Positions 9,324-28,095 of a stretch of 64,000 bases of DNA are shown in pieces. A program made the position numbers and the translations under genes. Positions within the stretch are counted from its first letter, which is position 1. Each line of letters begins with the position of its first letter. The notes beneath the pieces were generated by a model. The model was not told the DNA's origin and did no database searches. It saw only the letters and a program-made list of their open reading frames with translations. The stretch is from Pseudomonas putida (lineage in GTDB: Bacteria; Pseudomonadota; Gammaproteobacteria; Pseudomonadales; Pseudomonadaceae), in contig NZ_JANHLC010000010.1 of assembly GCF_028682395.1 (NCBI RefSeq), forward strand, positions 1 to 64,000, read 5' to 3'.

Positions 9324-9428
9324 TGTGTTGCGGCAAATGAGCGCTCTGGCCCGGGGCGCCTCTCTCCGTGGATCCAATGCTGTGCTATCGTTGCGGCATT
9401 ATTTCACGCGACCGAAGCGAGCCTGCGC

Positions 9429-11260: not shown

Positions 11261-11264
11261 CCTC

Positions 11265-11768
11265 GTGTACTTATTGACCCAGCGTTACCTGCGTTTTTTC
11301 ACCTTCAGCCTTGTGTTCGCCCTGTTTGGCCTGGCCGGTTGTCAGACCGCGCCACCCAAGGGCCTGACCCCCGAGCAGATCGCGGTCCTCAAGCAACAGG
11401 GCTTTGAATTGACCGATGAAGGCTGGGCCTTTGGCCTGTCGGGCAAAGTGCTGTTTGGCAGCGATGCCGATGGGTTGAATCCGGCCAGCGAGGCGATTGT
11501 CGAGCGCATCGGCAAGGCGCTGCTGAGCGTGGGTATCCAGCGCGTGCGAGTCGATGGCCATACCGATGCTTCGGGCAAGGACAGCTACAACGAGCAGTTG
11601 TCCCTGCGTCGGGCGAAAAGCGTGGCCAAAGTGCTGATGCAGGTTGGCATGAAGGAAGAGAATATCCAGCTGCGCGGCCTGGGCAGCAGTGAGCCGGTGG
11701 CCTCCAACGACACCGCGACCGGGCGCACCGAAAACCGCCGGGTCGCTATTGTCGTCGCCGCCGATTGA
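11265..11768 (+). CDS. yfiB: YfiB outer-membrane OmpA-like lipoprotein
   Basis: YfiB is the outer-membrane, peptidoglycan-binding lipoprotein that sequesters YfiR and so releases YfiN. I place the start at GTG 11265, eight bases after a CAGGAG site and four bases after the yfiN stop. This gives 167 aa with a lipobox FGLAGC at about residues 22-27. An OmpA-C domain follows (VDGHTDASGKDSYNEQLSLR, NIQLRGLGSSEPVASN, TGRTENRRV). A longer in-frame reading overlapping yfiN exists but lacks the signal peptide at its N-terminus. It completes the yfiRNB unit. Confidence 0.92.
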   Translation: MYLLTQRYLRFFTFSLVFALFGLAGCQTAPPKGLTPEQIAVLKQQGFELTDEGWAFGLSGKVLFGSDADGLNPASEAIVERIGKALLSVGIQRVRVDGHTDASGKDSYNEQLSLRRAKSVAKVLMQVGMKEENIQLRGLGSSEPVASNDTATGRTENRRVAIVVAAD

Positions 11769-11781
11769 CGCTCCCCTGTTA

Positions 11782-11821
<40 letters not shown>

Positions 11822-11846
11822 AGCGGCTACAGTGCCGGGGTTTCCT

Positions 11847-12797: not shown

Positions 12798-12812
12798 GTC
12801 GATCCGGTTTTT

Positions 12813-12841
12813 ATGTGCGTTCTTATTAGAAGTTTGCACAT
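12813..12841. promoter_or_regulatory. Candidate LysR operator in the lysR/mmsA intergenic region
   Basis: Two nested inverted repeats are visible: ATGTGC at 12813-12818 with GCACAT at 12836-12841, and inside them TTCT-N4-AGAA at 12820-12831. A TATACT hexamer at 12843-12848 could be the mmsA -10 box, with no good -35, as expected for an activator-dependent promoter. The assignment is inferred from position. Confidence 0.45.
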
Positions 12842-12932
12842 CTATACTCGAAAAACTGTCCGACAACCAATCCGCGACTATCGTTTTCGCCAAGCCGTCG
12901 TACTGGCCATAACAACAACTCAGGAGACTGCC

Positions 12933-14459: not shown

Positions 14460-14473
14460 ACGAGGAGGCAGAG

Positions 14474-15361
14474 ATGAGAATCGCATTTATCGGTTTGGGC
14501 AATATGGGCGCGCCAATGGCCCGCAACCTGATCAAGGCCGGGCATCAGCTGAACCTGTTCGACCTGAATCAGCAGGTGCTGCAGGAACTGGCCGACCTGG
14601 GTGGCCATATCGCCACTTCGCCGCGCACGGCGGCTGCGGGCAGTGAACTGGTGATCAGCATGTTGCCGGCAGCGGCGCATGTGCGCAGCGTCTGGCTGGG
14701 TGAGGACGGAGTGCTGGCGGGGATCGCCAAGGGCGTACCGGCCGTGGATTGCAGCACCATCGACCCGCAGACCGCCAGGGATGTTGCGGCGGCGGCGGCC
14801 AGGCAGGGCGTAGCCATGGCCGATGCGCCGGTGTCCGGGGGCACCGGTGGTGCCCAGGCCGGGACGCTGACGTTTATGGTTGGCTCGTCGCGCGAACTGT
14901 TCGATACCCTGCAACCGGTCCTGACGCAGATGGGGCGCAATATCGTCCATTGCGGCGAAGTCGGCACCGGGCAGATCGCCAAGATCTGCAATAACCTGCT
15001 GTTGGGCATTTCCATGGTCGGCGTCAGCGAAGCCATGGCCCTGGGCGCGGCGCTGGGGATCGATACCCAGGTGCTGGCCGGGGTAATCAACAGCTCCACC
15101 GGGCGCTGCTGGAGTTCGGAGGTCTACAACCCCTGGCCGGGCATCGTCGATACGGCGCCGGCTTCGCGGGGTTACACCGGTGGTTTTGGCGCGCAGTTGA
15201 TGCTCAAGGACCTGGGCTTGGCCACCGAAGCGGCGCGCCAGGCCCACCAGCCGGTGGTGCTCGGCGCGGTCGTCGAGCAACTGTTCCAGGCCATGAGCCT
15301 GCGCGGGGAGGGGGGTAAGGATTTCTCCGCGATTATCGGTGCTTACCGCAAGCCCGAGTGA
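14474..15361 (+). CDS. mmsB: 3-hydroxyisobutyrate dehydrogenase
   Basis: MmsB oxidises 3-hydroxyisobutyrate to methylmalonate semialdehyde with NAD+, directly feeding MmsA. The 295-aa protein has an N-terminal Rossmann motif GLGNMGAPMARNL, the family signature DAPVSGGTGGAQAGTL (about 116-131) and the catalytic lysine region GQIAKICNNLLLG (about 168-180). An AGGAGG site sits just before the ATG. It forms a two-gene operon with mmsA. Confidence 0.94.
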   Translation: MRIAFIGLGNMGAPMARNLIKAGHQLNLFDLNQQVLQELADLGGHIATSPRTAAAGSELVISMLPAAAHVRSVWLGEDGVLAGIAKGVPAVDCSTIDPQTARDVAAAAARQGVAMADAPVSGGTGGAQAGTLTFMVGSSRELFDTLQPVLTQMGRNIVHCGEVGTGQIAKICNNLLLGISMVGVSEAMALGAALGIDTQVLAGVINSSTGRCWSSEVYNPWPGIVDTAPASRGYTGGFGAQLMLKDLGLATEAARQAHQPVVLGAVVEQLFQAMSLRGEGGKDFSAIIGAYRKPE

Positions 15362-15382: not shown

Positions 15383-15404
15383 GCCGCAGTCGTCAGGCTG
15401 CGGC
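15383..15404. terminator. Hairpin between convergent mmsB and lysR
   Basis: GCCGCAG (15383-15389) pairs with CTGCGGC (15398-15404) over an 8-base loop, in the 42-bp gap between the mmsB stop and the convergent LysR stop. There is no clear T-run, so this may be a weak bidirectional stop. Confidence 0.4.
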
Positions 15405-16342
15405 TAGGGGGCGTCACTGCCGGTGCCCGCCTGCAGTTCATCGAACAGCAACTTCACCGGTGCCGACAGCGGCGAACCGTGGCGGGTGACGATCGCATAG
15501 GGCTCGCTGCGTGAGCGCAGCGCCAGGGGCAGCGCTACCAGCACGCCCATGGCCATGGCGGCTTCGGCGACTTCGGCGGGCATCAGGGCGATCAACTGCG
15601 GGTCCTGCTGCAACAGCATCAGGGTGGTGAAGGTCGAGGCGGTTTCCAGGGGAAAGCGCGGGAACTCCAGGCCGGCTTCGCTGAACTCACGCTCGAGCAC
15701 CAGGCGCATCGGCATGTTGGCCGGGTAGATGATCCAGCGATAACTTTCCAGCTGCGCCAGTTCCAGCTGCGTCGCCCCGGCCAGCGGGTGGCGGGCATGG
15801 GCGACCACACGTAACTGTTCGCGGTGCAGGGGCTGACAGTCATAGGCGGCGGGGCGCTGGCTGACGCTGGTCCGGCAGATCGCCAGGTCCAGGCGGCCTT
15901 GGTCGATCAGCGCGAGCAATCGGGCGCTGGTGTCCTCGACAATCTCCACCGACAGTTCCGGCTGGGTCTGGCGCAGGCGTGCGAGGCTGGCGACCAGCAT
16001 CGGCACCGCGCCCATGATGGTCCCGACCGCAATCCGCCCGCCCTGGCCCTGGAGGATGCCAAGCATCTCCTCGCGCAAATGCGCCAGGTCGCTGTGAATC
16101 AACCGGGCATAGCGGATGGCGCAGCGGCCCAGGTCATTGGCCTCCAGGCCTTGACTGGTGCGGGTGAACAAGCGAGTGCCAAAGGCCGATTCGATTTCAT
16201 TGAGGGCCTTGGTCGCGCCCGGTTGGGTAATCGAAACCTGTTCGGCAGCCTTGTGCAGCGAGCCGTGTTCGTCCAGTGCGATCAACAGGCGCAGCTGTTT
16301 GAGGCGCAGACGTGAAACCAGGGAGGGCAGGGAAGCAATCAT
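15404..16342 (-). CDS. LysR-family regulator (GbpR-like)
   Basis: This 312-aa LysR-type regulator has an N-terminal HTH (LRLLIALDEHGSLHKAAEQVSITQPGATKALNEIE, about 17-50) and a C-terminal sensor domain. The sequence style (LKQLRLLIALDEHGSLHKAAE) resembles the GbpR/galactose- and arabinose-metabolism subgroup. It is divergent from an araD1-like/KGSA dehydrogenase pair, so it is most likely their sugar-acid-responsive regulator. The ligand cannot be read from sequence. Confidence 0.82.
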   Translation of the reverse strand: MIASLPSLVSRLRLKQLRLLIALDEHGSLHKAAEQVSITQPGATKALNEIESAFGTRLFTRTSQGLEANDLGRCAIRYARLIHSDLAHLREEMLGILQGQGGRIAVGTIMGAVPMLVASLARLRQTQPELSVEIVEDTSARLLALIDQGRLDLAICRTSVSQRPAAYDCQPLHREQLRVVAHARHPLAGATQLELAQLESYRWIIYPANMPMRLVLEREFSEAGLEFPRFPLETASTFTTLMLLQQDPQLIALMPAEVAEAAMAMGVLVALPLALRSRSEPYAIVTRHGSPLSAPVKLLFDELQAGTGSDAP

Positions 16343-16456: not shown

Positions 16457-17452
16457 ATGCGATTGATCCAGTTCGAGACCACCAGCGCAGTTCGCCATGT
16501 CGGCATCGTCGAAGGTGAGCGTATCCAGACCGTACTCGGTTGCCATACCACCCGCGAGCTGGCGCTGGCGGCGATTGCCGCCGGGCGTGGTCTGCTTGAA
16601 GAAGTGCAGGCCCGGGGCAGCGAGCCTGGCCCGCTGTATGCCGAACTGCTCGACAGTGGCCGGGTACTGCCGCCGTTGGACCATGAAGACCCGGCCCATT
16701 GCCTGATCAGCGGCACCGGCCTGACTCACCTGGGCAGTGCCGCGACGCGGGACAAGATGCACCAGCAAAAGGCTCAGGATGAAACGACCATGACCGACAC
16801 CCTGCGTATGTTCAAGTGGGGGGTCGAAGGCGGCAAGCCGGGCGCGGGGGCGGTGGGGGCGCAGCCGGAGTGGTTCTACAAGGGCGATGGCTCGATTGTC
16901 GTGCGCCCCGGCGCCGAGCTGCCAATGCCGGCGTTTGCCGAAGACGCCGGCGAAGAGCCGGAACTGGTCGGCCTCTATGTGATCGGCCATGATGGCCAGC
17001 CGTATCGCCTGGGCTATGCCCTGGGCAATGAGTTTTCCGACCATGTGCTGGAGCGTCGTAGCTACCTGTACCTGGCCCACTCCAAGCTGCGCGCCTGTGC
17101 TTATGGCCCTGAACTGCGGGTCGGTGCCTTGCCTACCCATCTGTCGGGCTTTAGCCGGATCCACCGTGATGGCGCGGTATTGTGGGAAAAAGAGTTTCTC
17201 AGTGGCGAGGAAAACATGTGCCACAGCCTGGAAAACCTCGAATACCACCACTTCAAATACACGCAGTTCCTGCGTCCCGGCGATGTGCACGCGCATTATT
17301 TTGGCACCGCGACCCTTTCGTTTGCCGACGGTATCCAGGCCCAGCCCGGCGATACCTTCGAGATCGAGATGAGCGAGTTCGGCGCGCCGCTGCGCAATGG
17401 CATCGCCCCTGAGGCCGCGCCCCTGGCGCCGGGCGCGATCAATACCCTCTGA
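16457..17452 (+). CDS. AraD1-like FAH-superfamily enzyme (2-keto-3-deoxypentonate dehydratase)
   Basis: The 331-aa protein belongs to the fumarylacetoacetate-hydrolase superfamily, AraD1-like branch. In non-phosphorylative pentose pathways these enzymes dehydrate 2-keto-3-deoxypentonate to alpha-ketoglutarate semialdehyde. Visible features are the ISGTGLTHLGSAATRDKMHQ region (about 89-108), a metal-site EPELVGLYVIG (two acidic residues, about 161-171) and FSDHVLERRSYLYLAHSKLR downstream. The next gene encodes the enzyme that consumes alpha-ketoglutarate semialdehyde, which supports the role. Whether the substrate is the L-arabinose or D-xylose isomer is undetermined. Confidence 0.82.
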   Translation: MRLIQFETTSAVRHVGIVEGERIQTVLGCHTTRELALAAIAAGRGLLEEVQARGSEPGPLYAELLDSGRVLPPLDHEDPAHCLISGTGLTHLGSAATRDKMHQQKAQDETTMTDTLRMFKWGVEGGKPGAGAVGAQPEWFYKGDGSIVVRPGAELPMPAFAEDAGEEPELVGLYVIGHDGQPYRLGYALGNEFSDHVLERRSYLYLAHSKLRACAYGPELRVGALPTHLSGFSRIHRDGAVLWEKEFLSGEENMCHSLENLEYHHFKYTQFLRPGDVHAHYFGTATLSFADGIQAQPGDTFEIEMSEFGAPLRNGIAPEAAPLAPGAINTL

Positions 17453-17481: not shown

Positions 17482-19065
17482 ATGACCGTTATCACTGGTT
17501 GGAACTACATTGCCGGCGCACGCAGCGCCGAAGGCCAGACGACCCTGCAAAGCTTCGACGCCAGCACAGGCGAAGCCCTGCCATTCGCCTTCCACCAGGC
17601 CACCGAAGCCGAAGTGGATGCGGCTGCCCGGGCGGCTGCGGCAGCCTACCCGGCGTTTCGCAACCTGTCGGCGGTGCGCCGGGCCGAGTTCCTGGAGGCC
17701 ATCGCCGATGAAATCGACGGGCTGGGTGACGATTTCGTGACCCAGGTCTGTCAGGAAACCGCGCTGCCGGCCGGACGTATCCAGGGCGAGCGTGGGCGTA
17801 CCAGTGGACAGATGCGCTTGTTTGCCAAGGTGCTGCGTCGCGGCGACTTCTATGGCGCGCGCATCGACCGTGCCTTGCCGGATCGCCAGCCCCTACCACG
17901 CCCCGATCTACGCCAGTACCGGATCGGCCTCGGGCCGGTCGCAGTGTTTGGTGCCAGTAACTTCCCGCTGGCCTTTTCCACCGCCGGTGGCGATACCGCC
18001 GCCGCCCTGGCAGCCGGTTGCCCGGTGGTATTCAAGGCCCATGGTGGGCATATGGCGACGGCCGAGTGGGTGGCTGACGCCATTATCCGCGCCGCCGAGA
18101 AAACCGCGATGCCGTCCGGCGTGTTCAATATGATCTACGGCGCCGGTGTCGGGGCCTGGCTGGTCCAGCATCCGGCCATCCAGGCGGTCGGCTTTACCGG
18201 CTCCCTGGGCGGCGGTCGGGCCCTGTGTGACATGGCCGCGGCGCGGCCGCAGCCGATCCCGGTATTTGCCGAGATGTCGAGCATCAACCCGATGCTGCTG
18301 TTGCCCGAGGCGCTCAAGGCCCGTGGGGACAAGATCGCCAGTGAACTGGCCGCTTCGGTGGTACTCGGCGCCGGGCAGTTCTGCACTAATCCGGGCCTGG
18401 TGATCGGCATTCGCTCGCCCGAGTTCAGTGCGTTCCTGGAACGCTTCGCCGCCTTGATGAATGATCAGCCCGCCCAGACCCTGCTTAATGCCGGCGGCTT
18501 GAAAAGCTATTGCCATGGCCTGGAGCAATTGCAGGCCCATGCCGGGATCACGCACCTGGCCGGTTCCGCCCAGACGGGTAAACAAGCCCATGCCCAGTTG
18601 TTCAAGGCCGACGCCAGCTTGCTGCTGACGGGCGACGAGCTGTTGCAGGAAGAAGTCTTCGGCCCAACCACCATCGTCGTCGAAGTGGCCGACAAGGCTG
18701 AACTGGTCCAGGCGCTGCATGGCCTGCGCGGACAGCTGACCGCGACGCTGATCGCCGAGCCGGATGATCTGCAGGCCTATGGCGATCTGTTGGTGCTGCT
18801 TGAGCAGAAGGCCGGACGCCTGCTGCTCAATGGTTACCCGACCGGCGTCGAGGTCTGCGAAGCCATGGTCCATGGCGGACCGTACCCGGCGACTTCGGAT
18901 CCGCGTGGCACCTCGGTCGGTAGCCTGGCCATCGACCGTTTCCTGCGGCCGGTGTGCTATCAGAACTACCCGGATGCACTGTTGCCCGATGCCCTGAAAG
19001 ACGCCAACCCCCTGGGTATTCAGCGTTTGGTGGACAGCGTGAGCAGTACGGCCGCCTTGAGTTGA
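17482..19065 (+). CDS. Alpha-ketoglutarate-semialdehyde dehydrogenase
   Basis: This 527-aa NAD(P)+-dependent aldehyde dehydrogenase of the KGSADH group converts 2,5-dioxovalerate to 2-oxoglutarate, the last step of non-phosphorylative arabinose, xylose and hydroxyproline/glucarate routes. The catalytic Cys301 lies in GAGQFCTNPGLVIG. The N-terminus GWNYIAGARSAEG and the region VFGASNFPLAFSTAGGDTAAALAAGCPVV (split between residues about 154 and 182) are typical. It follows the AraD1-like gene by 29 bp with an AAGGAG site and is closed by a strong terminator, so the two form an operon. Confidence 0.9.
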   Translation: MTVITGWNYIAGARSAEGQTTLQSFDASTGEALPFAFHQATEAEVDAAARAAAAAYPAFRNLSAVRRAEFLEAIADEIDGLGDDFVTQVCQETALPAGRIQGERGRTSGQMRLFAKVLRRGDFYGARIDRALPDRQPLPRPDLRQYRIGLGPVAVFGASNFPLAFSTAGGDTAAALAAGCPVVFKAHGGHMATAEWVADAIIRAAEKTAMPSGVFNMIYGAGVGAWLVQHPAIQAVGFTGSLGGGRALCDMAAARPQPIPVFAEMSSINPMLLLPEALKARGDKIASELAASVVLGAGQFCTNPGLVIGIRSPEFSAFLERFAALMNDQPAQTLLNAGGLKSYCHGLEQLQAHAGITHLAGSAQTGKQAHAQLFKADASLLLTGDELLQEEVFGPTTIVVEVADKAELVQALHGLRGQLTATLIAEPDDLQAYGDLLVLLEQKAGRLLLNGYPTGVEVCEAMVHGGPYPATSDPRGTSVGSLAIDRFLRPVCYQNYPDALLPDALKDANPLGIQRLVDSVSSTAALS

Positions 19066-19081: not shown

Positions 19082-19118
19082 AAGGCCGAGTGGGGTTTTC
19101 CCCGCTCGGCCTTTTTTA
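19082..19118 (+). terminator. Rho-independent terminator of the araD1/KGSADH operon
   Basis: AAGGCCGAG (19082-19090) pairs with CTCGGCCTT (19105-19113). The inner TGGGG/CCCC bases extend the stem, and six T residues follow. It lies directly after the dehydrogenase stop codon. Confidence 0.9.
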
Positions 19119-19129: not shown

Positions 19130-20509
19130 TTACGCGCGGTGAAAGATCTTGCCGGGGTTCATCAGGTCCAGCGGGTCGAGTGCCTGCTTGATTGCACGCA
19201 TGGTATCGATGGCGACCTGGCCATGTTCTTCGACCAGGAAGTCGATCTTGTGCAGACCCACGCCGTGCTCGCCGGTACAGGTGCCGCCCGCCGCAAGGGC
19301 GCGATGGACAATGGCATGGTTGAGCCGTTCGGCTTCCACCAGTTCTTCGGGTTTGTTCGGGTCGAGGAGGAGGCAGACATGGAAATTGCCATCACCGACA
19401 TGGCCGAAGATTGGCGCCGGCAGGTAAGAGCCCTGCAGGTCCTGCTCTGCCCCGACCACGCATTCGGCAAGTCTCGACAGCGGTACGCAGACATCGGTGG
19501 ACAGCGCCCGGCAGCCCGGCTTGAGCTGCAAAAAGGCGAACAGTGCATCGTGACGGGCGCTCCACAAGCGATTGCGTTCCTCCTGTTGGGTCGCCCATTG
19601 GAAGTCGCTGCCGCCATTGCCGGCGGCCAGCTCCTGGACCATCTCGGCCTGTTCGGCAACGCTGGCGGCATTGCCGTGGAACTCCAGAAACAGGGTGGGC
19701 GCTTCGCGCAAAGTCAGCTTGAAATGCCGGTTCAGGGCCTGGATCGCCAGGCGGTCGACCAGCTCGGCGCGGGCCACCGGTACGCCCATCTGGATGGTTT
19801 CGATCACGGTCTGCACGGCGCCCTCCACCGAATCGAAGCCGCAGACCGCGGCGCTGATGGCCTCGGGTTGCGGGTGCAGTTTCAAGGTGATTTCGCTGAT
19901 CACACCCAGGGTGCCTTCGCTGCCGATAAACAGCCGCGCCAGGTCATAGCCGGCCGAGGACTTCTTGGCCCGTGAGCCGCTGCGCAGCACACGGCCGTCA
20001 GCCAGCACGGCATTGAGGCCCAGGACATTCTCGCGCATGGTGCCGTAGCGCACGGCATTGGTCCCCGAGGCGCGAGTCGCGCACATGCCGCCAATGCTGG
20101 CGTCGGCGCCGGGATCGATGGGGAAGAACAGGCCGCTGGCGCGCAGGTAGTCATTCAGGGCCTTGCGGGTAATGCCCGGCTGCACGGTGATGCTCAGGTC
20201 TTCGGGCTGGAACGCCAGGACCTGGTCCATGGCCGAGACATCCAGGCTGAGGCCGCCGTGAACCGCCAACAGATGGCCTTCCAGGGAGGAGCCGCTGCCG
20301 TAGGGGATCACCGGGACGCGGTGGGCGTGGCACAGTTGGAGGATGGCGCTGATTTCTTCGACTGTATGGGCGAACGCCACGGCATCGGGCAGTACCGGGT
20401 CATACAGCGATTCGTCGCGACCATGGTGTTCGCGCACGGCGCGGGCCAGGCTGAAGCGCTCGCCCAGCAGGGCGCTCAGGGCATCGGTAAAAGCTTGCGT
20501 CAGGGTCAT
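19130..20509 (-). CDS. FAD-linked 2-hydroxyacid dehydrogenase (GlcD/D-lactate dehydrogenase family)
   Basis: The 459-aa flavoprotein has an N-terminal PCMH-type FAD-binding domain (PYGSGSSLEGHL at about 69-80, FFPIDPGADASIGGMCATRASGTNAVRYGT at about 128-158, split here as two halves) and a C-terminal FAD-oxidase domain with FGHVGDGNFH and GTCTGEHGVGLHK. Members oxidise D-2-hydroxyacids such as D-lactate, glycolate or D-2-hydroxyglutarate and pass electrons to quinone or cytochrome. It is the last gene of the leftward operon dehydratase-oprD-gntR-this gene, so its substrate is probably an intermediate or by-product of that pathway. Confidence 0.82.
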   Translation of the reverse strand: MTLTQAFTDALSALLGERFSLARAVREHHGRDESLYDPVLPDAVAFAHTVEEISAILQLCHAHRVPVIPYGSGSSLEGHLLAVHGGLSLDVSAMDQVLAFQPEDLSITVQPGITRKALNDYLRASGLFFPIDPGADASIGGMCATRASGTNAVRYGTMRENVLGLNAVLADGRVLRSGSRAKKSSAGYDLARLFIGSEGTLGVISEITLKLHPQPEAISAAVCGFDSVEGAVQTVIETIQMGVPVARAELVDRLAIQALNRHFKLTLREAPTLFLEFHGNAASVAEQAEMVQELAAGNGGSDFQWATQQEERNRLWSARHDALFAFLQLKPGCRALSTDVCVPLSRLAECVVGAEQDLQGSYLPAPIFGHVGDGNFHVCLLLDPNKPEELVEAERLNHAIVHRALAAGGTCTGEHGVGLHKIDFLVEEHGQVAIDTMRAIKQALDPLDLMNPGKIFHRA

Positions 20510-20567
20510 AACAGGCTCCGTCGGAGAGGGGGGATCGCCCGCCGCGATCGCGCCCCGACCCTGCCGG

Positions 20568-21290
20568 CTACAGCGGTGTCAGGACATCCATCACGGTATC
20601 GAGGGCGACACGGGTGTCGTCGAGTTGCACCAGCGAGGCATGCCGGGCGCCGAGGGCGTCGCGGTTCTTGATCGCGGTGAGGATCGCCTTGTGCCGCGGC
20701 AGGCTGAGCTGCTGGGTGTTGGGGCGTAGGTTGGTGACATTGATCGACTCGCGCAGCGGCAGCGACAGCATGTTGCACATATAGGCGAGCAGATCGTTGT
20801 GGGTGGCATCGGCAATGGCGCGGTGAAAGTCCAGGTCCGGCTGCAGCAGGTCCTTGCGAGTCTGGGCGGCTTCCATGCGTTGGTAGGCCTCCTCGATCAC
20901 CGCGATATCGGCTTCGGTGGCGGTGGTCGCGGCCATGGCCGCGATTTCCGGCTCCAGAATCCGTCGCACCCCGGCCAGCGTGTTGAAAAACTGGCTGTGG
21001 GGGGTGGTCTGCATCAACCAGAACAGCACATCCGGGTCGAGCAGGTGCCATTCCACGCGGGGGCGCACCACGGTGCCGACCCGGGGCTTGGACGACACCA
21101 AGCCCTTGGCGCTGAGCACTCGAGTGGCTTCGCGCAGCACAGGCCGGCTGACCTGGTATTCCTCGCACAGCGTGGCCTCCAATGGCAGCTTCTCTTCCGG
21201 CTTGAAGCGGCCGGAAACGATATGCATGCCCAGTTCCTGAACGATCTGGGCGTGCATGCTCTTGCGTGGCTTGGGCGTCTGATAATCCAT
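20568..21290 (-). CDS. GntR/FCD-family transcriptional regulator
   Basis: This 240-aa FadR-subfamily regulator has an N-terminal winged HTH (KLPLEATLCEEYQVSRPVLREATRVLSAKG, about 34-64) and an all-helical FCD ligand domain with metal-binding type residues (DLDFHRAIADATHN and PRHKAILTAI). It sits inside the leftward sugar-acid operon and probably represses both arms of the divergon. Two sites matching the FadR-subfamily consensus TNGTNNNACNA are present in the intergenic region at 24513-24723. The inducer is likely a pathway substrate or intermediate (inference). Confidence 0.85.
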   Translation of the reverse strand: MDYQTPKPRKSMHAQIVQELGMHIVSGRFKPEEKLPLEATLCEEYQVSRPVLREATRVLSAKGLVSSKPRVGTVVRPRVEWHLLDPDVLFWLMQTTPHSQFFNTLAGVRRILEPEIAAMAATTATEADIAVIEEAYQRMEAAQTRKDLLQPDLDFHRAIADATHNDLLAYMCNMLSLPLRESINVTNLRPNTQQLSLPRHKAILTAIKNRDALGARHASLVQLDDTRVALDTVMDVLTPL

Positions 21291-21368
21291 AAAGACTGAG
21301 CTGCTCTGGCGAAATGCGCTGCATCATAGCACCGCTTCCGGCCGCTTTCCGGCAACCCTTGCCAAGGC

Positions 21369-22631
21369 TTATTTCAGGGCGATGGTGTAGGCCAGAATCA
21401 GCCGGTTCTCATCCATGTTCGCACCGAAACTGGAGCGCACCATGGCGTTACGCCAGCGCAGGGCGAGGTTTTTCAGCGGGCCGCTCTGCACGGTGTAGGT
21501 CACGTCCAGGTCGCGCTCCCATTCATGCCCGTCGCCGCCCTTGGCCAGCTCCACATGGTCGCCGCGCACATAGCGGGCGAAGGCGCTCAGGCCCGGCACG
21601 CCAACGTCGGCAAAGTTGTAGTCATAGCGCGCCTGCCAGGAGCGTTCGCCGGCGAGGATAAAGTTGCGGACCTGGATATCGTTGACCAGCGGCGTACTGG
21701 CGCCGGACAGCAGCAGGGCGCCGTTATCGCCATACATGCGCTGGTAACCGGCCGAGACGCTGTGGCCGCCGTAACCGGCACTGAACAGGCTGGTAAAAGA
21801 CTTGTTGTCGAGCCGCCCGGCCTTGGCGCTACCATCGTCCTTGCCGGTAAACAGGCCGATGTTGGCCGACAGGCTCCAGTCACCCAGCTTCTGTTTGTGG
21901 ACCAGGTTGTAGTAGCGCTGTTGGTAGATGTCTTCCAACTGCGATTGCCACAGGCCGACCAGGGTCCGATCGGCGTTGAAGCGATATTCGCCGCCCACAT
22001 AGTTGAAGCGATCCGAGGTCACCCCGCCGATACCGTCGGCCGCGAGATCGGCGTGGTCCGAGGAGTTGCGCTGGCTGGCGGAGCGGAACTGCCCGGTGTA
22101 GAGGGTCAGGTTGTCAATTTCCCTGGAGGTCAGCATGCCGCCCTGATAGCTCTGGGGCAGCAGGCGAGCATCGTTGCGCATTAGGATCGGCAGTTCGGGG
22201 AACAGTTCGCCGACCTTCAGTTCGGTCTTGGAGACCCGTACCTTGCCGACGGCGCCCAGGCGCGAGAACTCATCGGCGGAGTGCCCGTCGTCATGGGTTG
22301 GCAGCAGGCCAGTGTTGGAACGGGCGCGGCCGCTGTCGAGCTTGACCCCGAGCATGCCCACCAGGTCCATGCCGAAACCGACGGTGCCCTGGGTGTAGCC
22401 CGATTGCGCCTGGAAGAGAAAGCCCTGGGCCCATTCCTCCTGCTTGGATTGGGCGGCCTTGTCCTGGCGAAAGTCGCGGTTGAAGTAGAAGTTGCGTGCG
22501 GCAAGAGTGGCCGTGGCATCTTCGATAAAGCCGTGTTCCCCGGCAGTGGCGGCGGACACCGCGCACGTCAATGGGGCAAGCATGCCGGCAGCCAGCAGGT
22601 GTGGCCGGAAAAGGCCGGTGAGACGGGTCAT
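21369..22631 (-). CDS. OprD-family outer-membrane porin
   Basis: The 420-aa product is an OprD/OpdK-type substrate-specific porin of pseudomonads. It has a signal peptide (hydrophobic run about 12-29, AGEHGFIEDATATL after it), the family start FIEDATATLAARNFYFNRDFR, and C-terminal strands NLALRWRNAMVRSSFG and RLILAYTIALK. OprD-family members admit carboxylates and amino acids through a basic channel ladder. Its place between a sugar-acid dehydratase and the operon regulator suggests uptake of the hydroxyacid substrate. Confidence 0.9.
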   Translation of the reverse strand: MTRLTGLFRPHLLAAGMLAPLTCAVSAATAGEHGFIEDATATLAARNFYFNRDFRQDKAAQSKQEEWAQGFLFQAQSGYTQGTVGFGMDLVGMLGVKLDSGRARSNTGLLPTHDDGHSADEFSRLGAVGKVRVSKTELKVGELFPELPILMRNDARLLPQSYQGGMLTSREIDNLTLYTGQFRSASQRNSSDHADLAADGIGGVTSDRFNYVGGEYRFNADRTLVGLWQSQLEDIYQQRYYNLVHKQKLGDWSLSANIGLFTGKDDGSAKAGRLDNKSFTSLFSAGYGGHSVSAGYQRMYGDNGALLLSGASTPLVNDIQVRNFILAGERSWQARYDYNFADVGVPGLSAFARYVRGDHVELAKGGDGHEWERDLDVTYTVQSGPLKNLALRWRNAMVRSSFGANMDENRLILAYTIALK

Positions 22632-22633
22632 TA

Positions 22634-22644
22634 TTGTTGTACTC
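22634..22644. promoter_or_regulatory. Near-match to the GntR/FCD site upstream of oprD
   Basis: TTGTTGTACTC matches TNGTNNNACNA at all fixed positions but the last. It lies 3-13 bases ahead of the oprD start codon and would overlap the translation initiation region, so it may be fortuitous. Confidence 0.25.
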
Positions 22645-22671
22645 CCGAGGGTGGATGATGCGCTGTCGTGG

Positions 22672-22731
22672 TTTATCGCGAGCAGGCTCGCCCCCGCTCC
22701 CTGCCGGAAGCGAGCCAGCTCGCGATAAGAA
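22672..22731. repeat. REP-like inverted pair (REPIN)
   Basis: Between the dehydratase and oprD genes, TTATCGCGAGC-AGGCTCGC is followed after about 20 bases by the inverted copy GCGAGCC-AGCTCGCGATAA. Each half can fold alone (GCGAG/CTCGC) and the two halves can pair with each other. This is the arrangement of Pseudomonas REP doublets, which are non-autonomous elements dispersed by RAYT transposases. No RAYT gene is in the window. Confidence 0.8.
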
Positions 22732-22772
22732 CGTCAGAAGGCGGCGCCGGCGAATACCGGCGCCGCGGTGGA

Positions 22773-24512
22773 TCAATGTGAGTGACGCGGCACTTCGGAG
22801 CCCCGGCAGCCGACCAGGAAGTCGAAGTCGCAGCCTTCGTCGGCCTGCAGCACGTGGTCGACATACAGGCGGCTGTAGCCGCTGGAGAAAATCTTCGCGC
22901 TGGTGTCGGGTTGCAGATCGCTCAGGCGCGCGGCGAGCTCTTCGTCGCTGATATCCAGGTGCAGGCGGCCACCGGCGCAGTCGAGTTCAATGAAGTCACC
23001 GTTGCGTACTGCGGCCAGCGGCCCGCCGGCGGCCGCTTCAGGGGCCACATGCAGGACCACGGTGCCGTAGGCGGTGCCGCTCATGCGGGCATCGGAAATA
23101 CGCACCATATCGGTCACGCCCTTGGCCAACACCTTGGGCGGCAGGCCCATGTTGCCAACCTCGGCCATGCCCGGATAACCCTTGGGGCCGGCGTTCTTGA
23201 GGACCAGCACGCAGGTTTCGTCGACATCCAGGTCCGGATCGGCGATGCGCGCCTTGTAGTCATCGAAGTTCTCGAACACCACGGCACGGCCGCGATGCTG
23301 CATCAACGCAGGCGTGGCGGCCGATGGCTTGACCACCGCGCCGCGTGGCGACAGGTTGCCGCGCAGGATGCACAGGCCGCCGTCGGCCACCAGCGGGTTG
23401 TCGATCGGGCGGATCACTTCATCGTTGTACTGCGGCGAGGCCTGGCAGTTGTTCCAGATGCTCTGGCCATTGGCGGTCAGGGCGTCAGGGTTGGGCAGCA
23501 GGCCGGCTTCACCGAGGCGGCGGATCACCGCTGGCAGCCCGCCAGCGTAGTAGAACTCCTCCATCAGGAAGCGTCCGGACGGCTGCATGTCGACAATGGT
23601 CGGCGTGCCGCGGCCGACACGGGTCCAGTCTTCCAGATCGAGCTCCACGCCAATGCGCCCGGCAATGGCCTTGAGATGGATCACCGCATTGGTCGAGCCG
23701 CCAATGGCGGCATTGACCTTGATGGCGTTCTCGAACGCCGCTTTGGTCAGAATCTTCGACAGGCGCAGGTCTTCGCGAACCATGTCGACGATGCGCATGC
23801 CGGACAGGTGTGCCAGGACATAGCGGCGCGAGTCCACCGCCGGGATGGCCGCGTTGTGCGGCAGCGAGGTGCCCAGGGCCTCGGCCATGCAGGCCATGGT
23901 CGAAGCGGTGCCCATGGTGTTGCAGGTCCCGGCCGAGCGCGACATGCCGGCTTCGGCGGAGAGGAATTCATCAAGGCTGATCTGCCCGCCTTTATAGGCT
24001 TCGTGCATCTGCCAGACCACGGTGCCGGAGCCGATGTCCTTGCCCTTGTGCTTGCCGTTGAGCATCGGACCGCCGGTCACGACAATGGCGGGCACGTCGC
24101 AACTGGCCGCGCCCATCAGCAGGGCCGGGGTGGTCTTGTCGCAGCCGGTGAGCAGCACCACGGCGTCCACCGGGTTACCGCGGATGGCTTCTTCCACGTC
24201 CATGCTGGCCAGGTTGCGGGTCAGCATGGCGGTGGGGCGCAGGTTTGACTCGCCACTGGAGAACACTGGGAACTCGACCGGGAAGCCACCGGCTTCGAGC
24301 ACGCCTTTCTTCACGTGTTCGGCGATTTTGCGAAAGTGTGCGTTGCACGGCGTCAGTTCAGACCAGGTGTTGCAGATGCCGATGATAGGCTTGCCCTGGA
24401 ATTCGTGATCGGGAATACCCTGGTTCTTCATCCAGCTGCGGTACATAAAACCGTTTTTGTCGGCGGTACCGAACCATTGGGCGGAGCGGAGCGGGGTTTT
24501 TTTATCAGTCAT
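22773..24512 (-). CDS. IlvD/Edd-family sugar-acid dehydratase (pentonate dehydratase-like)
   Basis: The 579-aa protein belongs to the Fe-S IlvD/6-phosphogluconate dehydratase family and most resembles L-arabinonate (AraC-type)/pentonate dehydratases in length and N-terminus (SAQWFGTADKNGFMYRSWMKNQGI). The cluster cysteines are visible in CNTWSELTPCN, TGCDKTTPALLMGAAS and AGTCNTMGTAST. It removes water from a 2,3-dihydroxyacid to give a 2-keto-3-deoxyacid. It is first in a leftward operon with oprD, gntR and a FAD dehydrogenase, and divergent from a permease, an acylating aldehyde dehydrogenase and a pyruvate aldolase. The exact substrate is unknown; a pentonate or 5-deoxypentonate is inferred. 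Confidence 0.87.
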   Translation of the reverse strand: MTDKKTPLRSAQWFGTADKNGFMYRSWMKNQGIPDHEFQGKPIIGICNTWSELTPCNAHFRKIAEHVKKGVLEAGGFPVEFPVFSSGESNLRPTAMLTRNLASMDVEEAIRGNPVDAVVLLTGCDKTTPALLMGAASCDVPAIVVTGGPMLNGKHKGKDIGSGTVVWQMHEAYKGGQISLDEFLSAEAGMSRSAGTCNTMGTASTMACMAEALGTSLPHNAAIPAVDSRRYVLAHLSGMRIVDMVREDLRLSKILTKAAFENAIKVNAAIGGSTNAVIHLKAIAGRIGVELDLEDWTRVGRGTPTIVDMQPSGRFLMEEFYYAGGLPAVIRRLGEAGLLPNPDALTANGQSIWNNCQASPQYNDEVIRPIDNPLVADGGLCILRGNLSPRGAVVKPSAATPALMQHRGRAVVFENFDDYKARIADPDLDVDETCVLVLKNAGPKGYPGMAEVGNMGLPPKVLAKGVTDMVRISDARMSGTAYGTVVLHVAPEAAAGGPLAAVRNGDFIELDCAGGRLHLDISDEELAARLSDLQPDTSAKIFSSGYSRLYVDHVLQADEGCDFDFLVGCRGSEVPRHSH

Positions 24513-24529
24513 GGCGCGGTCGACTCTTA

Positions 24530-24540
24530 TTGTATGACTA
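24530..24540. promoter_or_regulatory. Candidate GntR/FCD operator 1
   Basis: TTGTATGACTA matches the FadR-subfamily consensus TNGTNNNACNA exactly. It lies 18 bases upstream of the dehydratase start codon, within its leader. The adjacent regulator gene in the same operon makes binding plausible. Confidence 0.6.
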
Positions 24541-24603
24541 GTTTCAGGCTGTTTTGCTGAATCTACCCCACAAAAAGCCTTTTTGAAACCGTTGCTCGCT
24601 AAA

Positions 24604-24614
24604 TAGTATTACTA
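24604..24614. promoter_or_regulatory. Candidate GntR/FCD operator 2
   Basis: TAGTATTACTA matches TNGTNNNACNA and is the core of a 13-bp palindrome, ATAGTA-T-TACTAT (24603-24615). It lies midway in the divergent region, so one repressor could cover both the dehydratase and the permease promoters. Confidence 0.65.
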
Positions 24615-24723
24615 TATTGTCTCGCTCAATTGGCCGAGATCGAACTGCCCTTGCCGTGTGCCAGGTGATGGAACGACTGACCAGGACAGACGAATCCATA
24701 ACAAAAACAATGTGGAGAAGACT

Positions 24724-26031
24724 ATGAATCCGGAAGCTCGGATCATTCGCATGCTGACGCTCAGGTTGATTCCCTTCCTGATCCTGCTGTACCTCGTCGC
24801 TTTCATCGACCGTTCCGCGGTGGGTTTCGCCAAATTGCACATGAACGCCGATATCGGCCTCAGCGATATGGCGTACGGGTTCGGTGCGGGCTTGTTCTTT
24901 ATTGGCTACTTCATTTTCGAAGTCCCCAGCAACCTGTTGCTGGAGCGCTTCGGTGCCCGTCGCTGGTTTGCCCGGATCCTGATTACCTGGGGCGCGATCA
25001 CCGTCGGCATGGCCTTTGTGCAAGGCTCCTACAGCTTCTACGTGATGCGTTTCCTGCTGGGCGCGGCCGAAGCCGGGTTCTTCCCGGGCGTGCTGTACTA
25101 CATCACGCGCTGGTTCCCGGTCCGTAACCGCGGCAAGGTGCTGGGCTTCTTTATCCTGTCCCAACCCATTGCGCTGATGGTCACCGGGCCACTGGCCGGC
25201 TGGCTGCTGGGCATGAACGGTATCTGGGGCCTGGCGGGCTGGCAGTGGCTGTTTATCACCATCGGGATCCCGGCCATCGTCCTGGCCTGGCCGACCCTGA
25301 AAATCCTCCCGGACACCCCCCAAGACGCCCGTTGGCTGAGTGCTGCCGATCGTCATTGGCTGCTCAGTGAGCTGGACAAAGACCGCAAGGAATACGGCCA
25401 GACCGAACACACCAACCCGTTGCGGGCCTTGACCGACAAACGCGTGCTGATCCTGGCGCTGCTCTATCTGCCGAGCACCCTGAGCACCTACGGGCTGAGC
25501 CTGTGGTTGCCGACCCTAGTGCATCAGTTTGGCGGTAGTGACCTGACCACCGGATTTATCTCGGCCATTCCCTACGTATTCGGTGTCATCGGCCTGTTGT
25601 TGATCCCGCGCAGCTCCGACCGTCTCAATGACCGTTATGGCCACCTGACGGTGCTCTATGTCCTGGGTGCGCTCGGCCTGTTCCTCAGTGCCTGGCTGAG
25701 TGTCCCCGGCCTGCAGTTGGCGGCGTTGTGCCTGACGGCCTTCAGCCTGTTCTCGGTTACGGCGATCTTCTGGGTGCTGCCGGGGCGTTTCCTGTCCGGC
25801 GCCACTGCTGCGGCAGGCATTGCCCTGATCAACTCGTTCGGCAACCTGGGCGGTTACATCGGCCCGTTCGGGATCGGCGCGCTCAAGGAATACACCGGCA
25901 CGCTGTCATCGGGCTTGTACTTCCTTTCGGCGGTCATGCTCAGTGGTGTCGTCCTCACTTATATCGTCTACACCCAGCTGGAAAAGAAAGCCACGGCGGC
26001 CACCGGTACGGCCCTCGGGCAGACGTCCTGA
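24724..26031 (+). CDS. MFS permease of the anion:cation symporter (ACS) family
   Basis: The 435-aa protein has about 12 membrane segments and the ACS-family opening [24 protein letters not shown], with [20 protein letters not shown] at about 73-92. ACS members import organic anions such as hexuronates, galactonate, tartrate, phthalate and 4-hydroxyphenylacetate. I chose the ATG at 24724 after GTGGAGAAG; an earlier in-frame ATG would add a hydrophilic leader. It heads the rightward operon with mhpF- and mhpE-like genes and probably imports the pathway's carboxylate substrate. Confidence 0.87.
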
Positions 26032-26074
26032 TCCCCAAGGCGGGCATGGACGCCTGCCGCCCTGGAGTATTTGC

Positions 26075-27013
26075 ATGACTAAAAAGTTGAAGGTCGCCAT
26101 TGTCGGTCCCGGCAATATCGGCACCGATCTGATGATCAAGGTACTGCGCAACGCCAAGTACCTGGAGATGGGCGCCATGGTCGGTATCGACCCGGCGTCC
26201 GATGGCCTGGCCCGCGCGGCTCGCATGGGCGTGGCGGTGACCCACGAGGGGATCGAGGGGCTGGCCCGCCTGCCGGTGTTTGACGAAATCGACTTTGTTT
26301 TCGACGCCACTTCAGCCGGTGCCCATGTCAAGAACGACGCCTTTTTGCGTTCGGTCAAACCGGGGATCCGCCTGATCGACCTGACCCCGGCGGCCATCGG
26401 TCCTTACTGTGTACCGGTGGTCAACCTGGAACAGAACCTGGACCAGCTCAACGTCAATATGGTCACTTGCGGTGGCCAGGCAACCATCCCGATGGTCGCA
26501 GCGGTGTCGCGGGTGGCCAAGGTCCATTACGCCGAAATCGTCGCCTCGATTGCCAGTAAATCGGCGGGCCCCGGCACTCGGGCCAATATCGACGAGTTCA
26601 CTGAAACCACGTCCAAGGCCATTGAAGTGATCGGCGGCGCTGCCAAGGGCAAGGCGATTATCGTGATGAACCCGGCCGAGCCGCCGCCGATGATGCGCGA
26701 TACCGTATTCGTGCTGTCCGAGGCGGCCGACCAGGCGCTCGTGGAAGCGTCGATTGTCGAGATGGCCGCGGCGGTCCAGGCTTATGTGCCGGGCTACCGG
26801 CTCAAGCAGCAGGTGCAGTTCGATGTGATTGCCGCCGATGCGCCGCTGAACATTCCGGGGCTGGGCAAGTTTTCCGGGCTCAAGACGTCGATTTTCCTCG
26901 AAGTCGAAGGCGCCGCCCACTACCTGCCGGCCTACGCCGGCAATCTCGACATCATGACCTCCGCAGCGCTGGCCACGGCCGAGCGCATGGCGCAGTCGAT
27001 GCTGAACGCCTGA
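26075..27013 (+). CDS. Acetaldehyde dehydrogenase (acylating)
   Basis: The 312-aa product matches the DmpF/MhpF/BphJ family in length and motif. It has an N-terminal Rossmann loop [14 protein letters not shown] and the catalytic Cys132 in [13 protein letters not shown]. It also carries the typical [22 protein letters not shown] substrate-domain region (about 168-189, which begins with S-A-G-P). It oxidises acetaldehyde or a short aldehyde with CoA and NAD+ to acyl-CoA, normally channelled from the partner aldolase encoded 11 bp downstream. The ATG at 26075 follows a GGAG site. The pair is not next to the phenol genes but is tied to a sugar-acid dehydratase divergon. Confidence 0.93.
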
Positions 27014-27024
27014 GGAGCCAATCG

Positions 27025-28047
27025 ATGACCTTCAATCCCGGCAAGAAACTCTACATCTCCGACGTGACCCTGCGCGATGGTAGCCATGCCGTGCGCCATC
27101 AGTATTCGCTCCAGAACGTGCAGGATATCGCCCGCGCTTTGGACCAGGCCCGAGTGGACTCCATCGAGATTGCCCATGGCGATGGCCTGCAAGGTTCGAG
27201 CTTCAACTACGGCTTTGCGGCGCACACCGACCTGGAATGGATCGAAGCCGCCGCCGATGTGATCAAGCACGCGAAAATCGCCACCCTGTTGCTGCCGGGC
27301 ATCGGCACCGTGCATGACCTCAAGGCCGCTTACGAGGCCGGTGCCCGGGTGGTACGCGTGGCAACCCATTGCACCGAGGCCGATGTGTCGAAGCAACATA
27401 TCGAATACGCGCGCAACCTGGGCATGGACACCGTCGGCTTTCTGATGATGAGCCATATGATCCCGGCCGAGCAGTTGGCGGCCCAGGCGAAGTTGATGGA
27501 AAGCTACGGCGCCACCTGCGTGTACATGGCCGACTCCGGTGGCGCGATGAGCATGCAGGATGTGCGCGACCGTTTCCGCGCGTTCAAGGCCGTGCTGGAT
27601 CCGCAGACCGAAACCGGTATGCACGCGCACCACAACCTCAGCCTGGGCGTGGCCAACTCGATCACCGCGGTGGAAGAGGGTTGCGACCGTATCGATGCGA
27701 GCCTGGCCGGCATGGGCGCCGGTGCCGGCAATGCCCCGCTGGAAGTGTTTATCGCCGCCGCCGAGCGCCTGGGCTGGAACCATGGCACCGATCTCTACAC
27801 GCTGATGGATGCGGCCGACGATATCGTGCGGCCCTTGCAGGATCGGCCGGTGCGGGTTGATCGCGAGTCGCTGGCGCTGGGCTATGCCGGGGTCTATTCG
27901 AGCTTCTTGCGCCATTCGGAAATGGCTGCCGCAAAGTACGGCCTCAAGACCGTCGACATCCTGGTCGAGCTGGGCAAGCGGCGGATGGTGGGGGGGCAGG
28001 AGGACATGATTGTCGATGTCGCGCTCGACCTGCTCAAGCGCGCCTGA
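27025..28047 (+). CDS. 4-hydroxy-2-oxovalerate aldolase
   Basis: This 340-aa DmpG/MhpE/BphI-type class II aldolase cleaves 4-hydroxy-2-oxovalerate to pyruvate and acetaldehyde. The HMGL-like barrel start [16 protein letters not shown] carries the catalytic Arg and metal-binding Asp. The metal-binding histidines are in [16 protein letters not shown] (about 193-208). The C-terminal communication domain ([30 protein letters not shown], about 254-283) interacts with the acylating dehydrogenase in characterised pairs. It ends the rightward operon before a strong hairpin. The family tolerates other aldehydes, so a hydroxylated analogue is possible. Confidence 0.93.
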
Positions 28048-28058: not shown

Positions 28059-28095
28059 ACTGTGGCCGACATGGCGTCGGCCACAGTGGGTTTTA
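28059..28095 (+). terminator. Terminator after the aldolase gene
   Basis: ACTGTGGCCGAC (28059-28070) pairs perfectly over 12 bp with GTCGGCCACAGT (28076-28087) and is followed by GGGTTTT. It sits between the aldolase stop and the convergent gltS stop, so it could end transcription from both sides. Confidence 0.85.

What the first reader, a model, noticed from the sequence alone, without database searches (positions are those of the whole stretch)
19130..28047. Possible undescribed sugar-acid route: IlvD-type dehydratase wired to an acylating-dehydrogenase/aldolase pair
Seen: an IlvD/Edd dehydratase, OprD porin, GntR/FCD regulator and FAD 2-hydroxyacid dehydrogenase are divergent from an ACS permease, a DmpF/MhpF-type dehydrogenase (Cys132 intact) and a DmpG/MhpE-type aldolase. 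Known: the last two normally finish aromatic meta-cleavage, splitting 4-hydroxy-2-oxovalerate to pyruvate plus acetaldehyde, then acetyl-CoA. No meta-cleavage gene is here. Inference: dehydration of 2,3,4-trihydroxyvalerate (a 5-deoxypentonate) at C2-C3 gives exactly 4-hydroxy-2-oxovalerate, so the cluster could be a self-contained 5-deoxypentonate pathway. An alternative is a normal pentonate giving pyruvate plus glycolaldehyde, then glycolyl-CoA. The FAD enzyme's role is open.
Basis: partly seen in the sequence, partly recalled or inferred. Interest (0 to 1): 0.8.

Follow-up and report, generated by a model that had tools for sequence, protein, structure and literature searches.

The report
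Pentonate cluster with borrowed aromatic-pathway enzymes
A few Pseudomonas species have fitted an ordinary arabinonate-type sugar-acid operon with the last two enzymes of aromatic-ring breakdown, which probably lets the same operon consume deoxy sugar acids that the normal route cannot finish.

Summary
The genes are real and correctly placed. In 52 of the 80 best dehydratase loci, MFS-AraD1 fills the divergent place that MFS-DmpF/DmpG fills here; 2 of 80 are like the window. So this is a known kind of operon, an L-arabinonate-type pentonate cluster, with a second lower arm added. Five Pseudomonas species have it intact and one has a decayed copy. The regulator boxes between the arms are kept, no meta-cleavage hydratase is nearby, and the aldolases have two origins at this one place: taken in twice, or replaced once (p-AU 0.002). 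Aldolase pocket residues are unchanged, which predicts (4S)-4-hydroxy-2-oxovalerate, the product expected from 5-deoxy-L-arabinonate, an acid the Weimberg arm cannot finish. A D-lactate-dehydrogenase-like FAD enzyme (87% identity or more) occurs in the same four of 249 genomes. The 5-deoxypentonate idea survives, refined to the L series, but nothing here fixes the substrate; ordinary L-arabinonate or D-fuconate remain open. I found no such pairing in the papers searched.

The parts
15404..16342 (-). LysR regulator, probably of the AraD1-KGSADH arm (inferred from position)
   Evidence: Pfam LysR; a LysR match lies beside AraD1 in L035, L199, L203, L204 and L209
16457..17452 (+). AraD1/GguC family, likely 2-keto-3-deoxy-pentonate dehydratase (Weimberg arm)
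   Evidence: NCBIfam NF040903 543 bits against 340; Pfam FAA_hydrolase 20.3 bits, under its cut-off 23.9; no solved relative at E 0.001; function inferred
17482..19065 (+). aldehyde dehydrogenase, likely alpha-ketoglutarate semialdehyde dehydrogenase
   Evidence: Pfam Aldedh; solved relatives 3v4c, 1eyy; next to AraD1; none of the 25 NCBIfam models shown reaches its cut-off
19082..19113 (.). inverted repeat, likely shared terminator between the convergent KGSADH and FAD genes
   Evidence: 14-nt arms, 93% complementary
19130..20509 (-). FAD-dependent D-2-hydroxyacid dehydrogenase, closest solved relative D-lactate dehydrogenase (probable, mitochondrial)
   Evidence: 8jdc, E 4.8e-156; at 87% identity or more only in G000, G071, G073, G148, of 249 genomes
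20568..21290 (-). GntR/FCD regulator of both divergent arms (inferred)
   Evidence: present in L034, L035, L119, L134, L140; boxes
21369..22631 (-). OprD porin, found only in the window's copy of the cluster
   Evidence: no match in the other clusters
22773..24512 (-). IlvD/EDD sugar-acid dehydratase, L-arabinonate-dehydratase-like
   Evidence: GCDKTT, GTCNTM, SGTA and C-terminal His
24530..24540 (.). TNGTNNNACNA box near the dehydratase start
   Evidence: that such boxes fit GntR/FCD regulators is recalled
24603..24615 (.). perfect palindrome ATAGTATTACTAT, second box, 74 bp from the first
   Evidence: ATAGTNNTACTAT occurs without mismatch at this one place in the genome
24724..26031 (+). MFS permease, likely for a sugar acid
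   Evidence: Pfam MFS_1; TIGR00893 313 bits against 395, below cut-off
26075..27013 (+). acylating acetaldehyde dehydrogenase, DmpF-type
   Evidence: 1nvm_B, E 7.7e-172
27025..28047 (+). 4-hydroxy-2-oxovalerate aldolase, DmpG-type
   Evidence: (1nvm_A, E 2.1e-198)
28059..28087 (.). inverted repeat, possible terminator of the MFS-ADA-HOA arm
   Evidence: 12-nt arms, 100% complementary

Best explanation
An L-arabinonate-type (Weimberg) pentonate operon has gained a second lower arm. Steps: (1) sugars are oxidised in the periplasm and the aldonate enters by the MFS (inferred). (2) The IlvD/EDD dehydratase removes water from C2-C3 to give a 2-keto-3-deoxy acid (inferred from family). (3a) Products ending in CH2OH go through AraD1 and KGSADH to 2-oxoglutarate (inferred). 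(3b) Products ending in CH3 cannot make the C5 aldehyde of the Weimberg route; they are split by the recruited DmpG-type aldolase into pyruvate and an aldehyde, which the DmpF-type dehydrogenase turns into acyl-CoA (inferred). The best-fitting substrate is 5-deoxy-L-arabinonate: it would give (4S)-4-hydroxy-2-oxovalerate, the natural substrate of this unmodified pair, hence pyruvate + acetyl-CoA. The GntR/FCD regulator controls both divergent arms from two boxes. Shown here: gene content, position, conservation, boxes, origin of the pair, pocket residues. Rough odds: DHT feeds the pair, 0.8; methyl-ended substrate, 0.5-0.6; 5-deoxy-L-pentonate in particular, 0.4-0.45.
For: Position: MFS then AraD1 stands in the divergent place in 52 of 80 DHT loci, MFS-ADA-HOA in 2 of 80; some loci are cut by contig ends. 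Recurrence: intact in 5 species (window; L034 with the near-identical L119; L035; L134; L140), and the 5 DHTs placed in the tree form one clade. Regulation: 61 of 61 DHT-MFS gap rows have a TNGTNNNACNA box, 53 of them two about 74 bp apart; shuffles give mean 3.3, largest 9 (rows are related, and L002 repeats the window). Supplier: 64 of 71 HOA loci hold a DmpE/MhpD/DmpH-family gene; the 7 without are the 5 DHT-linked loci, L122 and L183, which is cut by a contig end. Two origins: L035's HOA belongs to another lineage; one clade rejected, p-AU 0.0019, in a 31-row subset picked after the first tree. Aldolase: 15 of 15 positions checked are the same in the 6 linked and 66 other rows, one gapped row apart, and no residue marks the linked rows at the 15% threshold used. 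Stereochemistry: BphI uses only (4S), and its Leu87 lies by the C4 methyl (PMC3962088, passages); R. leguminosarum L-arabinonate dehydratase prefers C4-S acids and is best on D-fuconate, a terminal-deoxy acid (PMC11316719, passages). The step to the L series is my derivation.
Against: No substrate, growth, expression or enzyme data. The dehydratase shows no change near the active site that marks the HOA clade, so it may simply still prefer L-arabinonate. AraD1 and KGSADH are kept in all 6 genomes tested. Two lower arms for one ordinary pentonate have a precedent (Pseudomonas sp. BP8, Weimberg plus Route III; PMC10107873), so a methyl-ended substrate is not required. The FAD enzyme's co-occurrence is not explained by a 5-deoxypentonate. 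The set is rare (4 found among 166 DHT-bearing genomes of 249) and has decayed in G180. L035 keeps one of the two boxes. 5-deoxy-L-arabinonate is not an abundant known natural compound (recalled).
Confidence: 0.45

Rival explanations
1. Dahms-type arm for ordinary L-arabinonate: the aldolase splits 2-keto-3-deoxy-L-arabinonate into pyruvate and glycolaldehyde, and the dehydrogenase makes glycolyl-CoA, in parallel with the Weimberg arm.
For: The dehydratase is close to L-arabinonate dehydratase models and structures and unmarked in the HOA clade. C4 geometry of L-KDP matches the (4S) enzyme (my derivation). Two lower arms in one pentonate cluster are known (PMC10107873).
Against: The Leu88/Leu90 pocket, which in the orthologue lies next to a methyl group, is unchanged in all 6 linked rows; there is no specialised lineage, and a second meta-cleavage lineage was taken in. 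The Weimberg arm already serves KDP.
Confidence: 0.25
2. D-fuconate (6-deoxyhexonate) route: the dehydratase makes 2-keto-3-deoxy-D-fuconate, the aldolase gives pyruvate and D-lactaldehyde, and the FAD enzyme finishes D-lactate to pyruvate. The aldolase would then be a gene for the metal-dependent 2-keto-3-deoxy-L-arabonate/D-fuconate aldolase activity reported long ago from a pseudomonad (recalled, EC 4.1.2.18).
For: RlArDHT is best on D-fuconate (PMC11316719). The FAD enzyme is D-lactate-dehydrogenase-like and, at 87% identity or more, occurs in the same 4 of 249 genomes as the cluster.
Against: Needs a larger, hydroxylated aldehyde in an unchanged pocket. In L035 the FAD gene lacks about its first 200 residues while ADA-HOA is intact. 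No lactaldehyde-specific enzyme was recognised nearby.
Confidence: 0.15
3. The pair is a passenger: it serves aromatic breakdown encoded elsewhere and sits here by chance.
For: The own genome holds two other HOA genes in meta-cleavage-type contexts (L171, L178). The set is rare in the genus.
Against: Same place and order in 5 species; two HOA lineages in that place; shared box-bearing gap with the dehydratase; own meta-cleavage clusters already carry HOA.
Confidence: 0.08
4. The FAD enzyme, not the dehydratase, feeds the pair, by oxidising (2R)-2,4-dihydroxyvalerate to 4-hydroxy-2-oxovalerate.
For: FAD enzyme and DHT-linked pair occur in the same 4 of 249 genomes. About 60% homologues sit near an MFS and a LysR gene (L224, families checked; L225, L227, L228 judged by eye), a take-up-and-oxidise module.
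Against: FAD gene truncated in L035 while ADA-HOA is intact; it lies outside the MFS-ADA-HOA operon.
Confidence: 0.05

Closest known systems
Weimberg-type L-arabinose/D-xylose clusters of Pseudomonas (araD-araX-araA, xylDXA; PMC10107873, text parts 1-3 of 6 and passages read)
   Same: Aldonate dehydratase, a permease between dehydratase and KDP dehydratase, KGSA dehydrogenase; no sugar dehydrogenase of the pathway in the cluster (Gcd does it there).
   Different: Here DmpF/DmpG follow the permease, AraD1-KGSADH stand on the other side next to a LysR gene, and a FAD dehydrogenase is added. I could not compare sequences with that paper's genes.
Dual lower arm of Pseudomonas sp. BP8 / Route III of Herbaspirillum (PMC10107873; PMC6336799, results parts 1-2 of 3 read)
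   Same: Two alternative fates for one 2-keto-3-deoxypentonate in one organism.
   Different: Route III uses a dehydrogenase and a hydrolase to pyruvate + glycolate; here a class II aldolase with an acylating dehydrogenase, to acyl-CoA.
Dahms route (pyruvate + glycolaldehyde)
   Same: Aldol cleavage of the KDP-type product.
   Different: Known aldopentonate aldolases are DHDPS/NAL-family (PMC9795676, passages); here HMGL/DmpG family beside an acylating dehydrogenase.
DmpF-DmpG of phenol meta-cleavage (1NVM)
   Same: Align over nearly the whole length of both subunits; same pocket residues as all compared relatives.
   Different: Substrate must come from a sugar-acid dehydratase; no hydratase found.
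5-deoxyribose disposal, DrdKIA / DHAP shunt (PMC6079011, passages)
   Same: Would also dispose of a 5-deoxypentose.
   Different: Phosphorylating, ribose series, DHAP + acetaldehyde; unrelated enzymes.

Membership tests
Sugar acid dehydratase (SADHT) of IlvD/EDD | GCDKTT motif, third-cysteine motif with CMT or CNT, SGTA, C-terminal His (PMC9314677, PMC11316719) | tested here: met
   GCDKTT at 123, GTCNTM at 195, SGTA at 478, last residue His579
L-arabinonate dehydratase (NCBIfam PRK13016) | score over curated cut-off | tested here: not met
   837.6 bits against 882; broader PRK06131 met. So L-arabinonate-like, not filed as this equivalog
L-arabinonate dehydratase | activity on L-arabinonate | not testable with these tools
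   no assay
Weimberg pathway cluster | dehydratase + KDP dehydratase + KGSADH genes together | tested here: met
   DHT, AraD1 and KGSADH-like gene within 16.4-24.6 kb; AraD1 and KGSADH functions are by family and context only
DmpFG aldolase-dehydrogenase | TIGR03217 and TIGR03215 over cut-off, DmpG_comm domain, Cys132, pocket Leu/Tyr | tested here: met
Aromatic meta-cleavage cluster | 2-oxopent-4-enoate hydratase-family gene in the fetched stretch around HOA | tested here: not met
   none in 5 of 5 DHT-linked loci, against 64 of the other 66 loci
GntR/FCD-regulated divergon | linked GntR/FCD gene and conserved boxes in the divergent gap | tested here: met
   61 of 61 gap rows; binding itself untested
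5-deoxypentonate pathway | growth on and turnover of a 5-deoxypentonate | not testable with these tools
   no assay; only fit of stereochemistry and enzyme set

The most novel reading that the evidence does not exclude
A non-phosphorylative pathway for 5-deoxy-L-pentonates (or terminal-deoxy sugar acids generally) exists in nature, built by plugging the aromatic meta-pathway's aldolase/acyl-CoA-forming pair, from two lineages, into an arabinonate operon, so that one dehydratase serves CH2OH-ended acids through the Weimberg arm and CH3-ended acids through DmpFG to pyruvate and acetyl-CoA.
Probability: 0.42. Interest if true: 0.75.

Novelty: new variant of a known kind. Interest (0 to 1): 0.58.

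Why it matters
It links two textbook routes, aromatic meta-cleavage and oxidative pentose breakdown, through their shared 4-hydroxy-2-oxo acid chemistry, with aldolases of two lineages at the same operon position. If the substrate is a 5-deoxypentonate, it gives a route for deoxy sugar acids without phosphorylation. It also offers a native aldonate-to-acetyl-CoA route for engineering.

Tried and rejected
Active-site signature of a new dehydratase substrate: S86, two before Glu88 (taken as the Mg ligand by alignment), looked specific for the HOA clade but also occurs in L036, L037, L038, L040 and L066, so rejected. Specialised aldolase lineage: rejected, no linked-specific residue in HOA; ADA has one, Val94. 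DHT-HOA pairing outside Pseudomonas: 0 of 23 non-Pseudomonas loci by record title among the 80. In the order sample DHT was found in 31 of 293 genomes and in the class sample in 6 of 369, but I did not then search those genomes for HOA, so the question is open. P. morbosilactucae as a natural test without the Weimberg arm: AraD1-KGSADH is present there on another contig, so not decisive. Regulon search: no other perfect box in the genome; one-mismatch sites were fewer than the reversed-pattern control. Sigma-70 promoters in the gap: none found. No GntR-type box in the other seven gaps of the cluster looked at.

Papers: the ten searches showed no description of a sugar-acid dehydratase paired with DmpFG. 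Searches found nothing; several listings were capped (25 of 42 papers seen, 15 of 138, 20 of 24, 15 of 51). Subscription papers and preprints are not in that library.

Limits of the samples: HOA matches were found in 84 of 249 genus genomes. I fetched 69 HOA loci: most full-length rows of 78% identity or more and four of the roughly 56% rows, and left out fragments, two further G129 rows and the other lower rows. With L034 and L035 this makes the 71. The match list was cut, so not all its 166 DHT positions were compared with HOA positions. L119 and L204 were dropped from the DHT tree, and L119 from the subset. Of seven FAD-homologue regions fetched I printed five.

Full report
WHAT IS THERE. 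The seven genes named are intact ORFs at the stated coordinates and belong to the families named. The dehydratase is a sugar-acid dehydratase by motif: GCDKTT, GTCNTM, SGTA and a C-terminal histidine, the marks given for that subfamily in PMC9314677 (results parts 1-2 of 3 read) and PMC11316719 (passages). Its best solved relatives are 8ej0, named in PMC11316719 as the P. ureilyticus sugar-acid dehydratase, and 5j83, the R. leguminosarum L-arabinonate dehydratase. The aldolase and acylating dehydrogenase align over nearly their whole length with the two subunits of 1NVM, DmpG and DmpF. The FAD protein is nearest to a probable mitochondrial D-lactate dehydrogenase (8jdc).

Next to the FAD gene, convergent with it and separated by a likely terminator, lie AraD1/GguC (16457-17452; NF040903 well over cut-off) and a KGSADH-like aldehyde dehydrogenase (17482-19065), with a LysR gene. 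With the dehydratase these make a complete Weimberg-type set. The AraD1 and KGSADH functions are by family and context only.

THE ANCESTRAL OPERON. Of the 80 best dehydratase loci kept from the GTDB collection, 52 have a divergent MFS followed by AraD1, in many with KGSADH behind. In L039, and in L041 and L042 where no MFS is divergent from the dehydratase, AraD1-KGSADH lie instead on the far side of the dehydratase, as in the window. Only L034 (P. morbosilactucae) and L035 (P. seleniipraecipitans) have ADA-HOA after the MFS; a few of the 80 loci are short. The simplest reading is an arabinonate-type operon to which ADA-HOA, a FAD gene and, in the window only, OprD were added.

HOW OFTEN. Among 249 Pseudomonas genomes, HOA matches at E 1e-60 occur in 84, the dehydratase at 1e-250 in 166, AraD1 at 1e-100 in 177. 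HOA next to the dehydratase was found in four: G000 (the window), G071, G073 and G148. A 97%-identical dehydratase in G180 stands in a decayed copy: MFS match over its full length, a GntR fragment, a 32-residue HOA fragment, no ADA, FAD or KGSADH match. The FAD protein at 87% identity or more occurs in the same four genomes; 53-62% homologues occur in 14 genomes, two of these four among them. In L035 the FAD gene has lost about its first 200 residues while ADA-HOA are intact. AraD1 and KGSADH are present in all six genomes tested, adjacent to the cluster in four. In G071 and G534, taken as one species from their near-identical clusters, they are on another contig, and the only dehydratase match at E 1e-60 is the one in the ADA-HOA cluster.

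WHERE THE PAIR CAME FROM. Of 71 HOA loci examined, 64 hold a gene of the DmpE/MhpD/DmpH family in the fetched stretch; the seven without are the five DHT-linked loci (L034, L035, L119, L134, L140), L122, and L183, which is cut by a contig end (families of all queries but one checked). The window itself was not in that count; its scanned ORFs have no such gene. The dehydratases of the clusters form one clade (quick tree, SH-aLRT 99). The aldolases do not: L035's falls with rows L155 and L142, the others with L122 (careful tree; no single origin in 200 bootstraps), and a single clade is rejected in a 31-row subset (p-AU 0.0019). The group was named from gene context; the subset was picked after the first tree was seen. 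The ADA tree also places L035 apart, though its starred branches do not force this and its bootstrap had not settled. So the pair arrived twice, or was replaced in place once.

REGULATION. All 61 dehydratase-MFS gap rows carry a TNGTNNNACNA box, 53 of them two about 74 bp apart, in both kinds of cluster; 200 single-base shuffles give on average 3.3 rows, at most 9. These rows are related (and L002 repeats the window), so 61 is not 61 independent cases; L035 has one box. In the window the boxes are at 24530-24540 and 24603-24615; the perfect palindrome is found once in the genome. That this motif fits FadR/FCD-type regulators is recalled. The ADA-HOA pair therefore sits where AraD1 sits in relatives, behind the same control region.

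WHAT IT PROBABLY DOES. A Weimberg arm dehydrates at C4 and ends in a C5 aldehyde, so it needs a C5 hydroxyl. A 5-deoxy acid would stop at 4-hydroxy-2-oxovalerate, which is what DmpFG uses. BphI, the studied orthologue, takes only the (4S) form, and its Leu87 lies by the C4 methyl (PMC3962088, passages). The window aldolase keeps the matching Leu88, Leu90 and Tyr291, as do all 72 rows compared (the one-residue shift in numbering is mine). By my derivation the (4S) form arises from acids with the C4 geometry of L-arabinonate, and R. leguminosarum L-arabinonate dehydratase prefers C4-S acids, with D-fuconate, a terminal-deoxy acid, best at kcat/Km 4400 against 930 for D-galactonate and 570 for L-arabinonate (PMC11316719). 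Dehydratase and aldolase thus fit each other on 5-deoxy-L-arabinonate and not on 5-deoxy-D-ribonate or D-xylonate. The genome has two genes over the cut-off of the membrane PQQ dehydrogenase family TIGR03074, and in P. putida M2 glucose dehydrogenase oxidises the pentoses (PMC10107873), so a sugar dehydrogenase in the cluster may not be needed.

WHAT IS NOT SETTLED. Nothing here measures a substrate. The unmarked dehydratase and the two-arm precedent of strain BP8 leave ordinary L-arabinonate open. The D-lactate-dehydrogenase-like FAD enzyme fits D-fuconate better, through D-lactaldehyde. Its homologues at about 60% identity lie near an MFS and a LysR gene (L224 checked; L225, L227, L228 by eye).

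VERDICT. It is a new variant of a known kind: a Weimberg-type pentonate operon with a recruited aromatic-pathway lower arm, probably extending it to terminal-deoxy acids.

Noticed in passing
L209 (G180), 8761-14733: Decayed relative of the cluster: dehydratase, MFS, AraD1 and LysR match over nearly full length, but GntR and aldolase survive only as fragments and ADA, FAD and KGSADH matches are absent.
   Followed up: partly
L122/L210 (G225): ADA-HOA pair with no hydratase-family or dehydratase match, beside what looks by eye like an acyl-CoA synthetase gene; its aldolase groups with the DHT-linked ones. May be another use of the pair.
   Followed up: no
L035, 13040-13858: FAD dehydrogenase gene of P. 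seleniipraecipitans lacks its N-terminal FAD-binding part.
   Followed up: partly
L224, L225, L227, L228: About 60%-identical FAD dehydrogenase near a LysR gene and an MFS gene: perhaps a small take-up-and-oxidise module for some D-2-hydroxyacid.
   Followed up: partly
window 22632-22772: The OprD-dehydratase gap holds an inverted sequence that looks by eye like a Pseudomonas REP element, at the edge of the window-specific OprD gene.
   Followed up: no
window 14474-15361: 3-hydroxyisobutyrate dehydrogenase-like gene (TIGR01692 over cut-off) just outside the LysR gene; role in the pathway unknown.
   Followed up: no
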